NCBI GenBank assembly: GCA_025774865.1
Contig: JALGZO010000526.1
Span: 1 to 25,268, forward strand
DNA: 25,268 nt
DNA from: a bacterium
Lineage (GTDB): Bacteria > ARS69
Direction: 5' to 3'
The translations under genes were made by a program, and so were the position numbers. The first letter of the stretch is position 1. Every line of letters begins with the position of its first letter. Positions 456 to 5,696 of this stretch are shown one piece after another. The notes beneath the pieces were generated by a model. That model saw only the letters and a list, made by a program, of their open reading frames with translations. It had not been told where the DNA came from and did not search any database.

Positions 456-2651
456 ATGGTATGGCGTTCGGCCGCCCTACGGAATCTCTGCATCGTGCTC
501 GGCATTTGGGGAGCGGTCGACGGTCGCGAGGAAGCCCTCGCCGCGTTCGAGGATCGGACCTCCGCCGCCGGCCTTCTCTGGTCCCGCTCGAGCTGGGGAG
601 CCGCCCTCGTCGATCTGGATCGCGACGGCGATCTCGATCTGTATACCGGTCGACATCTTTACAGGGCTCGACTCTTCTGGAACGACGGGCAGGGCGTCTT
701 CGACCCGGAACCGTTGATCGGGTCCAGTGATCGCCACGGGGTCGTGACCGTGCCGCTCGGCTCCGACGAGTTTCCCGACCTGCTCATCGTGCACGGAGCG
801 GGGGAGCCGAACGAGCTCTATCGCAACGACGGACCCGGCGCGTTCTCCATCCTCGAGGGGGCCGGGGGAATCGACGATCCCTCGGGTCGTCCGCGAGCCG
901 TCTCGGCCGCCGACTACGACGGCGACTTGCTCGTGGACGTCTGGATCGGGAAGGCACCCAGCGCGCCGAGTCCGAACTCCCTGTTCCGAGGCGACGGGTT
1001 CTATTCGTTCATCGACGTTGCGCCCTCGGTCGGGTTGGACGAGCCCGACGGCACGGTCGGCGGCATCTGGGGAGACTACGACGGCGACGGCGACCCCGAT
1101 CTCTTCGTCGGTGGAGAAGAGTTTCCCCGCCCGTCCAAGCTCTATCGCAACAACGGAGGCTCGTTCGTGGACGTGACGTCGGTCTTCAGTCCGATCCCGC
1201 CCGTCGTGTCGGGCGCCGACTGGGGCGATTTCGACGACGACGGCGATCTCGACCTCGCCGTCTGCGCCGGCGAAGTCGGCATCTTCGACACGTTTACGGA
1301 GGGGGACACCCTCCGTTACTTCTTCAGCACGAACTACTCCGAAGACGGGGTCGACGGCCTCACGATCCCGTCGAGCGCCGATACGCTCTTCGCGCGAATG
1401 CGGATACGAGGAGTGTACGACTTCTCCAAGACCTTCCTCGGTCCGGATTCCGCATCGCCCATCGGCGCGTTTCCTTTGGCGCTCACCGACGAATACGTCG
1501 GCGCTCCGATCTTCGAACCCGGGGTCGACCAGGGCACGTGGATCTGGAGGCAGTTTCCGGGAGGCCCGTGGGAGCTGAGGTGCTCGACCCCCTTCGTCAA
1601 CTTCGACAACTTCGACGGCAATTTCACGGAGTCCGCACCGATCGTAGGAGTGACGGCCCACGGACTCGAGGCGTCGGGCTTTCAGTCCGGTGGCCCACGG
1701 GTCTGGCGCAACGACGGCGAGTCCTTTGCGGAGGTCACGGGCGACCTCGGACTGCCGCCGGCCATGGTCAACCCCCGCCATGTTTCCTGGGTCGACTACG
1801 ACAATGACGGCGATCTGGACCTTCACGTCGTCGACAAGGGGACGAGTGCGACGCCGAACGCTCCCGACGCGTTGTTTCGCAACGACGGTGCGGTGTTCGT
1901 CGATGTGACCGCGTCGGAGAACGTCGCCGGCGGCACCCTGGGAATGGGGGACGGCGCCGTGTGGGGGGACATCGACCGCGACGGGGACCTGGACGTGTTC
2001 ATCGCGCAGGGAGGCGGACCGAGGGCCTTCGGAGGCGCGGCGCTCCTCTACCGTAACGACGGGACGTGGGGGGCGTCTCTCGGGCTCGATCTCGTCGGCC
2101 ACGAATCGGGGCCGGCGGCGCTCGGGGCCAAGGTCACCGCTCATGTCGCGGGGCAGTCGCGGGTGCGGCGCAAGTCGGCGAACTCCTGGCGCGGGTTCGC
2201 CCAGTCCGGCGAGATCCATATCGGTCTCGGCGCGGCGACCAGCGCGGACTCGCTGGTCGTCGAGTGGCCGTCGGGGCTGGTCGACGTGCACCGTTCCGTC
2301 TCCGCCGGCTTCTACCGACTGGACGAGGGCCAAGGGGTACTCGACGCGGGAGTGGCCGTGCCCCGGGAATCGGTGGGTTGGCACATCGCGGCGATCCATC
2401 CTCAACCCGCTCGTCACCACCAGTCCATCGAGCTCTTCGTGGAGCAGCCGGTAGCGCTCGAAATCGCGGTTTACGATTTGGCCGGACGACTCGTGAGGAA
2501 ATTGCACCGGGGTCCGGTCGTGTCGGGGCCGGTCGCGGTCGACTGGGACGGTCTCGACGCTCGGGGTCGGCGGGTCGCGCCGGGAGTCTACTTTCTCCGC
2601 GCCACGGACGGCCGCTCACTCGGCTCCGCCAAGAGCGTCTGGCTCCGCTGA
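456..2651 (+). CDS. Secreted FG-GAP/VCBS repeat protein with ASPIC/UnbV and FlgD-like C-terminal domains
   Basis: This 731-residue exported protein starts with a hydrophobic leader (residues 1-29, possible cleavage after ALA). It carries repeated calcium-binding-type propeller motifs of the form DxDxDGDxD: LDRDGDLDL near 54, DYDGDL near 153, DYDGDGDPD near 208, DFDDDGDLD near 258, DYDNDGDLD near 448 and DIDRDGDLD near 506. An ASPIC/UnbV module follows (about 545-615, with the signature VVEWPSG). The C-terminus (about 655-729) is a FlgD-like Ig domain with VYDLAGRLVR and PGVYFLR, the type used as a sorting tail in several FCB-group lineages. Residues about 275-415 contain no repeat motif and look like a domain inserted in the propeller. 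Such proteins are usually surface or extracellular; the ligand is unknown. AGAGG lies 8 nt before the ATG. Confidence 0.88.
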   Translation: MVWRSAALRNLCIVLGIWGAVDGREEALAAFEDRTSAAGLLWSRSSWGAALVDLDRDGDLDLYTGRHLYRARLFWNDGQGVFDPEPLIGSSDRHGVVTVPLGSDEFPDLLIVHGAGEPNELYRNDGPGAFSILEGAGGIDDPSGRPRAVSAADYDGDLLVDVWIGKAPSAPSPNSLFRGDGFYSFIDVAPSVGLDEPDGTVGGIWGDYDGDGDPDLFVGGEEFPRPSKLYRNNGGSFVDVTSVFSPIPPVVSGADWGDFDDDGDLDLAVCAGEVGIFDTFTEGDTLRYFFSTNYSEDGVDGLTIPSSADTLFARMRIRGVYDFSKTFLGPDSASPIGAFPLALTDEYVGAPIFEPGVDQGTWIWRQFPGGPWELRCSTPFVNFDNFDGNFTESAPIVGVTAHGLEASGFQSGGPRVWRNDGESFAEVTGDLGLPPAMVNPRHVSWVDYDNDGDLDLHVVDKGTSATPNAPDALFRNDGAVFVDVTASENVAGGTLGMGDGAVWGDIDRDGDLDVFIAQGGGPRAFGGAALLYRNDGTWGASLGLDLVGHESGPAALGAKVTAHVAGQSRVRRKSANSWRGFAQSGEIHIGLGAATSADSLVVEWPSGLVDVHRSVSAGFYRLDEGQGVLDAGVAVPRESVGWHIAAIHPQPARHHQSIELFVEQPVALEIAVYDLAGRLVRKLHRGPVVSGPVAVDWDGLDARGRRVAPGVYFLRATDGRSLGSAKSVWLR

Positions 2652-2687
2652 GGTCGAAGCGGGGTTTCCGAATCCGGCCCGAGGGGG

Positions 2688-2764
2688 TGGTAGCGGTGCA
2701 GGGACTCGAACCCCGGACACGCGGATTATGATTCCGCTGCTCTAACCAACTGAGCTACACCGCC
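2688..2764 (-). tRNA. tRNA with CAU anticodon, probably elongator tRNA-Met
   Basis: The minus strand folds into a full 77-nt cloverleaf. The acceptor stem GGCGGTG pairs with CACCGCT (one G-T pair), the D stem is GCTC/GAGC, the anticodon stem GCGGA/TCCGC carries loop ATCATAA, the variable loop has 5 nt, and the T arm is CGGGG-TTCGAGT-CCCTG. Discriminator A and an encoded CCA complete it. The anticodon is CAT. It lacks initiator hallmarks: positions 1 and 72 pair, and the anticodon stem has no GGG/CCC run. The anticodon-stem sequence resembles many bacterial elongator Met tRNAs. tRNA-Ile2(CAU), the TilS substrate, is the alternative and cannot be excluded by eye. Confidence 0.95.
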
Positions 2765-2785
2765 CCACGAAAATCGCGCGGGAGG

Positions 2786-2814
2786 AAGCTACGGAAGCGG
2801 CTCTCGGGTGTCAA
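2786..2814 (-). promoter_or_regulatory. Promoter of the CAU tRNA
   Basis: A perfect -35 TTGACA (2809-2814), a 17-bp spacer and a -10 TAGCTT (2786-2791) lie on the minus strand. The predicted start is near 2779, 15 nt ahead of the mature tRNA 5' end. It lies just after the minus-strand terminator at 2844-2883, so the tRNA appears to be transcribed independently of whatever lies upstream. Confidence 0.6.
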
Positions 2815-2843
2815 GGAACCCGGGCCCCCGGTCGGGAGTATGC

Positions 2844-2883
2844 AACAAACGAAGGAGGAGCCACCATGTCAGGTGACTCCTCC
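2844..2883 (-). terminator. Rho-independent terminator on the minus strand
   Basis: Read on the minus strand, arms 2872-2883 and 2854-2865 form a continuous 12-bp stem (7 bp, one U-G wobble, 4 bp) with a 6-nt loop. The U-rich tail TTCGTTTGTT (2853-2844) follows. On the plus strand the wobble becomes a C-A mismatch and no T-run follows, so the minus strand is favoured. It must end a minus-strand transcript starting somewhere above 2883, but no convincing gene was found there. Confidence 0.6.
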
Positions 2884-2943
2884 TCGAGAAGGGTTCGCAG
2901 GGCTTGCAGTGCCGGATCGTGCTGGTGAACCCCTCGAAGGAGG
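2844..2943 (-). ncRNA. Candidate structured RNA or attenuator (unidentified)
   Basis: Besides the terminator, a longer hairpin can form on the minus strand between 2927-2943 and 2879-2896, with a 30-nt loop. It has about 16 pairs, including G-U pairs and one small internal loop. The same arms on the plus strand give A-C mismatches, so a minus-strand RNA is favoured. The two hairpins share bases 2879-2883 and so compete, as in terminator/antiterminator switches. I do not recognise an Rfam family: no SRP, 6S, tmRNA, RNase P or T-box signature was found. The 5' end and promoter are unclear; TTGACG at 3123-3128 lacks a matching -10. The transcript may simply be the tail of a longer RNA. Confidence 0.3.
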
Positions 2944-3231
2944 GTGACCGCGCCACGGAGCCGTCTTTCCCGACCCGACTCTCCCGGGCCGTCCCAGTAC
3001 CGGGGTCGGGGCTGCGGGGCGTCCGGACCGGACGCGGTCTCCTCCGAAGAAACGCGTTGCAATGTCGGGGATGGAAGGCAATTGCGTTTCGTGGGATCCA
3101 CTTTCCTTACAGTTTTCGGGAACGTCAACTCGCCCCGCCGCCGGGCCGGACGAACTGACGACAGGCGCGCACGAGCGGCCTTTCGGTCACGTTTTCGCTC
3201 GGCTTCCCCGGTAGCCGGGTCCGATCCTGGC

Positions 3232-3240
3232 TGCTAGACT
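3232..3240 (+). promoter_or_regulatory. Possible extended -10 promoter of the lipoprotein/barrel pair
   Basis: TGCTAGACT matches the TGnTAnnnT extended -10 form. The predicted start is near 3247, giving a 30-nt leader that includes the ribosome-binding site GGAGAGG before the GTG at 3277. There is no good -35 hexamer. Confidence 0.3.
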
Positions 3241-3276
3241 GTCCGGTCACTCTGGCCCACGGAGAGGAAAGTCGCG

Positions 3277-4482
3277 GTGCCAAGTTTCGTGCGAACGCGA
3301 AGAGGCATCGCCCGGTTCGGTCCCGCGATCGTGCCGGCTCTCCTCCTGGCGGCCTGCGACACGAATCAAGACAATCGGGTCGGCGTCGGCCTCATCCAGG
3401 ACCTCGGTGACGAGAAGGCCGTGCGCGACACCACCTTCGCGCCGCCGGACACGACGACTGATTTCCATCTCACGAAACCGCCTCCGGGCACCGGCCTGTC
3501 GGCATCTTTGCTGATCGGGGCCCGGCCGGGCTATCTCTCCCGCAGCTTCCTGCAGTTCGACCCCGCTGGCCTGCCGGACTCCGGGACCGTGATCGACAGC
3601 GCGGCGGTGCATCTCGTCGCCCTGGAGGACAAACCGGACACTGATCCGGTGTTCACCATGACCGTGCATCGGGTGACGTCCGAATGGAGCGAACTGGATG
3701 TCGACCCCGACTCGATCCCCTCGTTCCTCGCCACCGCGAGCGACACGATCAGCTTCGACTCGTTCGCGAAGGACGACACGGCTTCGTTCGCCGTCTCCCT
3801 CGCCCAGTTCTGGGTCGATCGCCCGGACTCGAACTTCGGCCTGGTGTTGATTCCGGCGGACGGGATGGCCTCCTTTCTCGAGTTCAGCTCACAGGAGACG
3901 GTGACGCCGCCTCGGCTCTCCGTAGCCTGGGGCGCCGAGCCCCCGGTCGATGTCTTCGCGACGCAGGACACGTTCGTGCTCGAGGCGATCGAGGGGGAAT
4001 TCGTGCCCCTCACGGGCCTGCCGGGACGAATGACGGTCGCCCGTGGTGTCCCGGCGCGCTCGCTTCTCCTCTTCGACCTGCCCGATTCGGGAGAGACGCC
4101 CGGGTTCTCCGACCTCACGACCGTGAACCGCGCCGAGCTGGTCCTTCACGTCGACCAGACGGCCTCGCTCATGAACGAGTTCTCGGTCGGGGTGCAGCGG
4201 GTGCTGGACGAACCCTGGGCCGGCGACTCGACCGCAGTCACATCGCTCCTTCTCGGCACGACGCCGGTGAACGCCGAAACTGACTCGGTCGTGCTCACCA
4301 TCACCGGACACGTGCAGGACCTGCTGCGCGACGAGAACTACGGCTTCCAGTTGCGCGCACTAGACGAGAGGCCCGACGTCGATTACGTGCGCTTTTACGC
4401 ACATGATTCAGAGGATGCCGCCAAGGTCCCGGCCCTTCGGCTGTGGTACACGCCCGGAGTTGGTGAGGGGGGAGGGCCGTGA
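3277..4482 (+). CDS. Lipoprotein with two DNRLRE-like beta-sandwich domains
   Basis: A 401-residue lipoprotein: basic N-terminus, hydrophobic stretch and lipobox LLAAC with the lipidated cysteine at residue 27. The mature part looks like two copies of one domain (about 72-220 and 228-392). Each has an R-S-[FL]-L-x-F-D strand near its start (residues 89-95 and 261-267), then a stretch like VIDSAAVHLV or VNRAELVLHV, a V-x-x-x-W element, and an N-[FY]-G-[FL] strand before a closing R-L-x-x-x-W/Y. This is the layout of DNRLRE-type extracellular beta domains; function is unknown. GTG is chosen as start because GGAGAGGAAA lies just upstream. It overlaps the next gene by GTGA, so the two are probably co-translated and may act together at the outer membrane. 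Confidence 0.72.
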   Translation: MPSFVRTRRGIARFGPAIVPALLLAACDTNQDNRVGVGLIQDLGDEKAVRDTTFAPPDTTTDFHLTKPPPGTGLSASLLIGARPGYLSRSFLQFDPAGLPDSGTVIDSAAVHLVALEDKPDTDPVFTMTVHRVTSEWSELDVDPDSIPSFLATASDTISFDSFAKDDTASFAVSLAQFWVDRPDSNFGLVLIPADGMASFLEFSSQETVTPPRLSVAWGAEPPVDVFATQDTFVLEAIEGEFVPLTGLPGRMTVARGVPARSLLLFDLPDSGETPGFSDLTTVNRAELVLHVDQTASLMNEFSVGVQRVLDEPWAGDSTAVTSLLLGTTPVNAETDSVVLTITGHVQDLLRDENYGFQLRALDERPDVDYVRFYAHDSEDAAKVPALRLWYTPGVGEGGGP

Positions 4483-5696
4483 CGCGAGCGATCATCGTCG
4501 GGGTGGCGGCTGCACTCTCGGTTGTGTCGCCCGCCGGGGCCCAATCGCTCTATTCGCTCCGCGGCAGCGGCGAGGCGACGCTCCCGACCCGCGCGGCGAC
4601 CCGGGCGGTCGGGGCCGCCGAGGCCGCCTCCGCGACCGCCACCCTGACCGGGAATCCGTCGAACATCTCGGGGGCTGACAAGTTGTTGTTCTACGGAACT
4701 TACGTCACCGAGTGGGTGAAGACCGAGGAGAAGACCGACGCCGGGGTTCGCGTCCGCAAGGACTACACCGGTTTGATCTCGAACGTGGCCCTCATCTTTC
4801 CGATCGGGCCGATCGCGCTCGGAACCGGCTTCCTCGTCGATCGTCGCCACGGTGGCACGATCGAGCAGCCGGCCGTAACGGATACCACGGAGGCGGGTCA
4901 ATCATACATCCAGACCTTCGATGCTAGCGGCAACCTCCTTCGCGTGCCGGCGCTCTTCGCGGCGCGGCTGAAGAGGATCGAGTTCGGCGCGGGGCTCGAT
5001 GTCCTCCTTCGGAACTCGAAGCGACGTTGGATCAACGATCTCAGCAGCACCAGCGACTTCGTTTCGAGCAACGACATCGCCCGGTCGAGCCAGTGGGGCG
5101 TCGCATGGCGCGGCGGTCTTCGCCTCCCGGTGGGTCGGCGCCTCAAGATCGGGGCCTGGTTCCATCTCCCGTCGGATCTTTCCGGAACGCTGACGTTCGA
5201 GAACCACGATCCGAATGGGGGCAAAGTGGAGAACGACATCGACAGCGAGGTCGCGCCGAGTGGGGCGGTCGGACTGGAAGTGCAACCGTACTACAGCCTG
5301 CGCATCCTCGCCGATTGGGTGCACGAACGGTGGGAGGACGTCACTCCCTTGTCGGACAACACCGAGTTCGTGAACGTCGACCGGATCGGCGGGGGCATCG
5401 AGTGGGCGGCTACCCGCGGTGGGCGCCGGTGGCCGGTGCGTCTCGGCTATCGGACGGAGACGCTGCACACGTTGGATGCGGGAGGGCGCGAAGTTCGCGA
5501 GCACTTCGTGACGGGGGGTTCGGGCTTCGGCGTCGGCGACGGGCGGGGAGAGATCGATTGGTTTCTCGAGTACGGACGTCGTGGCGACGCGCAGGAGTCG
5601 GAGTTCTTCGAGGAGATCTTTCGATTCGGCGTCACGTTGACGGGAGCCGAGACCTGGACACGTCGGCGACGGCCCGATGATGGCGACGACTGGTAG
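4479..5696 (+). CDS. Outer-membrane beta-barrel protein (FadL/OmpP1-like size and style)
   Basis: 405 residues. A signal peptide ends near AGA-QS (residue 21). Alternating hydrophobic/aromatic strands typical of a barrel follow, for example LLFYGTYVTEWV, ALGTGFLVDRR, FGAGLDVLLR, LRLPVGRRLKIGAWF, SLRILADWVHERW and WPVRLGYRTETLH. The motif TGNPSNISGADKLLFYG early in the mature protein recalls the N-terminal region of FadL-like transport and autotransporter-independent barrel families, but I cannot assign a substrate. The GTG start overlaps the stop of the preceding lipoprotein (GTGA), so partnership with it is likely. The C-terminus is polar (DDGDDW) and lacks the classical terminal Phe of proteobacterial porins. 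Confidence 0.7.
   Translation: MTRAIIVGVAAALSVVSPAGAQSLYSLRGSGEATLPTRAATRAVGAAEAASATATLTGNPSNISGADKLLFYGTYVTEWVKTEEKTDAGVRVRKDYTGLISNVALIFPIGPIALGTGFLVDRRHGGTIEQPAVTDTTEAGQSYIQTFDASGNLLRVPALFAARLKRIEFGAGLDVLLRNSKRRWINDLSSTSDFVSSNDIARSSQWGVAWRGGLRLPVGRRLKIGAWFHLPSDLSGTLTFENHDPNGGKVENDIDSEVAPSGAVGLEVQPYYSLRILADWVHERWEDVTPLSDNTEFVNVDRIGGGIEWAATRGGRRWPVRLGYRTETLHTLDAGGREVREHFVTGGSGFGVGDGRGEIDWFLEYGRRGDAQESEFFEEIFRFGVTLTGAETWTRRRRPDDGDDW

What the first reader, a model, noticed from the sequence alone, without database searches (positions are those of the whole stretch)
2844..2943. Competing hairpins on the minus strand upstream of the CAU tRNA: a candidate regulatory or structured RNA
Seen directly: a 12-bp U-G-tolerant terminator stem with U-rich tail (2844-2883), and a longer 16-pair hairpin (2879-2896 with 2927-2943) sharing bases 2879-2883 with it. 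Both are G-U compatible only when read on the minus strand; the plus strand gives A-C mismatches. The strand asymmetry suggests a minus-strand RNA whose ending is switchable. I could not match it to a known family.
Basis: partly seen in the sequence, partly recalled or inferred. Interest (0 to 1): 0.6.

Follow-up and report, generated by a model that had tools for sequence, protein, structure and literature searches.

The report
Conserved small RNA upstream of tRNA-Met

Summary
Both inverted repeats exist and both read on the minus strand. They are not a self-standing switch. Its core, a rod-shaped hairpin at 2939-3045 with an almost invariant cap (2979-3005), is conserved in two further genera, upstream of the same tRNA-Met and divergent from the same lipoprotein gene. 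The rod carries compensatory changes. A promoter-like TTGACG-N17-GAAAGT lies upstream in all three. A fourth genus (complete assembly) has the tRNA and lipoprotein gene almost touching and lacks the RNA. No Rfam family matches, and 6S and SRP RNA lie elsewhere.

The "competing hairpins" fail: in the full-length ensemble the terminator forms with P about 1, and the shared pairing 2879-2883 with 2939-2943 with P about 0. Bases 2939-2943 belong to the rod's closing stem. The tRNA has its own promoter downstream of the terminator, kept also where the RNA is absent.

Most likely this is an independently transcribed, lineage-specific small RNA ending in an intrinsic terminator and acting in trans through its cap. 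The gene and its structure are well supported; function and transcription are inferred.

The parts
2844..3093 (-). inferred RNA gene, about 250 nt (5' end about 3093, 3' end about 2844)
   Evidence: promoter-like site, conserved core and terminator in order; full-length fold z -3.4 to -3.5; transcription itself not shown
3123..3128 (-). -35-like TTGACG, identical in three genera
   Evidence: same -35 hexamer as upstream of the 6S RNA of these genomes
3100..3105 (-). position of the -10 box: GAAAGT (in GGAAAGTGG), 17 nt after the -35, identical in three genera but not a sigma-70 consensus
3049..3090 (-). 5' hairpin GAAACGC/GCGTTTC; this 5' segment is variable in length and sequence in relatives
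2939..3045 (-). conserved rod-shaped hairpin (core of the RNA)
   Evidence: BLASTN E 5.7e-11 and 1.4e-7 to two genera; compensatory changes in 6 of 33 pairs
2979..3005 (-). nearly invariant cap CCCCGGTNCTGGGACGGCCCGGGAGAG: 5-bp stem, 12-nt loop, AGA bulge
   Evidence: identical in three genera except one loop base
2888..2935 (-). second hairpin (2888-2896 with 2927-2935), recognisable in G002, not in G001
2842..2885 (-). intrinsic terminator (stem 2852-2885, U-rich tail 2842-2851)
2786..2814 (-). the tRNA's own promoter-like site: TTGACA (2809-2814), 17 nt, TAGCTT (2786-2791)
   Evidence: kept in G001, G002 and in G003, which lacks the RNA
2688..2764 (-). tRNA-Met (CAT)
   Evidence: Rfam RF00005 65.8 bits

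Best explanation
The minus strand carries an independently transcribed small RNA gene of about 250 nt (about 3093 to 2844). The neighbouring tRNA-Met is a separate transcription unit with its own promoter. The conserved cap (12-nt loop plus AGA bulge) is most likely the working surface, offered to a protein or an mRNA, so the RNA would act in trans as a lineage-specific regulator. Shown: conservation, synteny, structure with compensatory changes, terminator sequence, absence in a complete relative. Inferred: transcription, trans action and the partner.
For: Two other genera hold the core, E 5.7e-11 and 1.4e-7, both upstream of the same tRNA-Met and divergent from the same lipoprotein-like gene pair, 42-48% aa identity. 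Covariance-model scores are 121-133 bits, one copy per genome. For the rod: 97.9% of cells paired, 6 pairs changed on both sides, 0 of 500 shuffles as high; sliding the partners drops pairing to 38-56%. Six G-U cells on the minus strand would be A-C on the plus strand. TTGACG-N17-GAAAGT is identical in all three. Terminator fold z -5.5. Complete relative G003 has only about 126 nt between tRNA and the divergent gene, no RNA there, and no convincing match elsewhere. 6S and SRP RNAs are found at other loci.
Against: Only three sequences, so covariation statistics are thin, and the structure was derived from the same alignment. The -10 box is not a sigma-70 consensus. The relatives have a 3' hairpin but no U-rich tail, so the terminator as such is not conserved. 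No RNA-seq. No Hfq gene was found in any of these genomes, so the usual Hfq-dependent base-pairing route is not supported. G001 as a full-length RNA does not fold better than shuffles (z 0.17).
Confidence: 0.7

Rival explanations
1. A terminator/antiterminator switch on the minus strand that decides whether transcription reads on into the tRNA.
For: The two repeats share 2879-2883; a terminator sits upstream of a tRNA.
Against: In the full-length ensemble the terminator has P about 1 and the competing pairing P about 0; 2939-2943 pairs inside the conserved rod; no base sharing between the two 3' hairpins in G002; the tRNA has its own promoter-like site, kept even where the RNA is absent.
Confidence: 0.06
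2. A CsrA-sequestering RNA: the conserved loop CUGGGACG presents a GGA to CsrA.
For: The invariant loop holds a largely unpaired GGA in all three. CsrA genes occur in G001 and G002, and both CsrA and the RNA are missing in complete G003.
Against: CsrB carries 22 GGA and about 18 repeated elements (PMC7652899); here only 1-2 unpaired GGA, not clearly above shuffles. The conserved A of ANGGAN is a U here. No CsrA gene found in the window's own genome (93% complete).
Confidence: 0.08
3. A plus-strand element: a leader or regulatory region of the divergent lipoprotein gene at 3277.
For: The element lies in the same intergenic stretch and the gene is kept next to it in all three genera.
Against: G-U cells favour the minus strand 6 to 1; U-tail and promoter order fit the minus strand; G003 keeps the gene without the element.
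Confidence: 0.07
4. An ordinary terminator plus chance GC-rich hairpins, no RNA gene.
For: The region is GC-rich; single-sequence fold scores of the core are weak (z -0.9 to -1.6).
Against: Core conserved at 76-80% with an almost invariant 27-nt cap between genera whose neighbouring proteins are 42-48% identical; compensatory changes.
Confidence: 0.05

Closest known systems
6S RNA (RF00013)
   Same: Rod-shaped, similar size class, -35 box TTGACG also used by the 6S gene of these genomes
   Different: A separate true 6S RNA is present elsewhere in G000-G003 (G001 below the cut-off); no Rfam match here
CsrB/RsmZ-type CsrA-sequestering RNAs
   Same: Free-standing sRNA with a GGA in an invariant loop
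   Different: Far too few GGA sites; loop lacks the conserved A; CsrA not found in the window's genome
Orphan structured RNA candidates found in intergenic regions by comparative genomics (e.g. PMC2864571, PMC8632094, listed)
   Same: Conserved secondary structure in a GC-rich intergenic region with no known ligand or partner
   Different: Known here only from three genera of one small phylum; not compared motif by motif with those lists beyond Rfam 15

Membership tests
6S RNA (RF00013) | Scores above the family's covariance-model threshold | tested here: not met
   no 6S match in 2640-3300 even at E 5
6S RNA (RF00013) | Would be the genome's only 6S candidate | tested here: not met
   6S at G000:C194, G002:C270, G003:C4 above the cut-off
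Bacterial SRP RNA (RF00169) | Covariance-model match; only copy in the genome | tested here: not met
   SRP RNA elsewhere in G000, G002, G003, G004; no match here
CsrB/RsmZ-type RNA | Many GGA motifs in hairpin loops | tested here: not met
   1-2 unpaired GGA per RNA
CsrB/RsmZ-type RNA | CsrA encoded in the same genome | tested here: inconclusive
   in G001 and G002, not found in G000 (93% complete)
Hfq-dependent base-pairing sRNA | Hfq encoded in the genome | tested here: not met
   no Hfq match in G000-G004
Riboswitch / attenuator of the downstream gene | Mutually exclusive terminator and antiterminator pairings | tested here: not met
   competing pairing P about 0 at thermodynamic equilibrium, no ligand modelled
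Riboswitch / attenuator of the downstream gene | Downstream gene depends on read-through | tested here: inconclusive
   the tRNA has its own promoter-like site; no expression data
Intrinsic terminator | GC-rich stem followed by a U-rich tail | tested here: met
   not met in relatives
Bacterial small RNA gene | Detected transcript | not testable with these tools
   no RNA-seq available

The most novel reading that the evidence does not exclude
A new, lineage-specific structured RNA class whose nearly invariant cap binds a dedicated protein or metabolite, expressed from a non-consensus promoter and so under dedicated control.
Probability: 0.35. Interest if true: 0.55.

Novelty: new member of a known kind. 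Interest (0 to 1): 0.38.

Why it matters
It adds a well-delimited, apparently undescribed small RNA family to an uncultured bacterial lineage in which the search found no Hfq, so its mode of action would be informative. The near-invariant cap gives a concrete probe for finding the binding partner. As it stands it is an orphan RNA known from three genera, and its function is open.

Tried and rejected
Rfam at gathering and at loose thresholds: only the tRNA; weak eukaryotic or viral matches (MEG3, mascRNA and others) are chance. Stem pattern across genome contigs: two unrelated actinobacterial matches, not followed up. Cap pattern in viral contigs: none. Model R2 over 386 genomes: one further match (G371, 27 bits, E 0.009 in one genome, so expected by chance over 386), inside a 253-aa open frame whose sequence reads like a PyrK-type subunit (my reading, not searched); rejected. 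Model R1 was built with a mis-registered structure by my own error and never used. G004 cannot be judged: its tRNA-Met locus was not found in the assembly. A plus-strand 20-codon ORF with a good Shine-Dalgarno (ATG at 2866) is built from the terminator arms and was seen by eye only; not pursued. RNase P and tmRNA were not searched for separately: absence of the element from complete G003 argues against a universal housekeeping RNA.

Full report
Observation. Both repeats are real. The minus-strand stem 2885-2852 (14 pairs, loop 6, U-rich tail) is the only terminator-like site found in 2640-3320 and folds far better than shuffles (z -5.5). The longer hairpin 2879-2896/2927-2943 also folds (z -2.8), and the two share 2879-2883. 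The strand preference is as described: on the plus strand the terminator stem is broken by mismatches.

A larger element. The intergenic sequence 2765-3276 was searched against related whole genomes. In both, the match lies upstream of a tRNA-Met (CAT) and divergent from homologues of the window genes 3277-4482 and 4479-5696 (42-48% identity). The core aligns with an almost invariant cap CCCCGGTNCTGGGACGGCCCGGGAGAG and folds alike in all three as a rod.

Structure. On the three-sequence alignment with the named rod, 97.9% of cells pair, six pairs change on both sides, and none of 500 shuffles reaches this; sliding the partners by 1-3 columns leaves 38-56% paired. Six cells are G-U on the minus strand and one cell is A-C, which fits the minus strand. 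With three sequences, and the structure derived from them, this is good but not conclusive support. A covariance model scores 121-133 bits at the three loci and finds one copy per genome; nothing convincing in G003, G004 or 381 further genomes. The single extra match (G371) is in a coding frame and expected by chance.

Transcription unit. Upstream of the core all three genera carry TTGACG-N17-GAAAGT (window 3128-3100). The -35 hexamer is the one upstream of the 6S genes of G000 and its relatives, where the -10 is TATCAT; the -10 position here is conserved but not a consensus. A start about seven bases on gives an RNA of 250 nt in the window, ending in the terminator. The distance from promoter to core varies (RNA about 250-390 nt). 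In relatives a hairpin stands at the 3' end but without a U-rich tail. The tRNA has its own site, TTGACA-N17-TAGCTT (2814-2786), kept in all three and in G003. In G003, complete, the tRNA and the divergent gene are about 126 nt apart and the element is absent. This is a natural empty state and argues against an obligate leader of the tRNA and against a universal housekeeping RNA.

The switch. In the ensemble of the full RNA, 2879-2883 pairs within the terminator with P about 1 and with 2939-2943 with P about 0. Bases 2939-2943 pair with 3041-3045 of the rod. The only real competition is between the outer end of the rod and the second hairpin (about 54 to 46%), which does not touch the terminator. 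The longer hairpin was thus an artefact of looking at 2844-2943 alone. This is an equilibrium calculation without ligand; a ligand-driven switch is not formally excluded.

What it is not. Rfam 15 gives only the tRNA. 6S RNA and SRP RNA are elsewhere in these genomes. CsrA is encoded in G001, G002 and G004 but was not found in G000 or G003; the RNA has only one or two unpaired GGA, unlike CsrB. No Hfq was found.

Mechanism. Best supported is an independent small RNA with a conserved cap as its contact surface, acting in trans on a protein or mRNA. Conservation, synteny, structure and the terminator sequence are shown. Transcription, trans action and the partner are inferred. It is a new family of a known kind (bacterial small structured RNA); interest is moderate because function is open and only three members are at hand.

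Noticed in passing
window 3277-4482 and 4479-5696, +: A lipoprotein-like gene (lipobox-like LAACDT by eye) and the next gene are kept as a pair in four genera at 40-48% identity but match no Pfam family.
   Followed up: partly
window 3100-3128, minus strand: Promoter-like site with a TTGACG -35 but conserved non-consensus GGAAAGTGG at the -10 position and a conserved CGAAA in the spacer; may mark an alternative sigma factor or an activator site.
   Followed up: no
G000-G004, whole genomes: No Hfq found in any; CsrA in three of five genera and missing in the complete G003, parallel to the RNA except in the window's own genome.
   Followed up: partly
window 2853-2928, +: On the plus strand the terminator arm makes a strong Shine-Dalgarno (AAGGAGGAGCCACC) before ATG 2866 and a 20-codon ORF; probably a by-product of the stem.
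   Followed up: no
window 456-2651, +: FG-GAP / UnbV_ASPIC protein with a C-terminal FlgD_ig domain, on the strand opposite to the tRNA and ending just beyond its 3' end.
   Followed up: no
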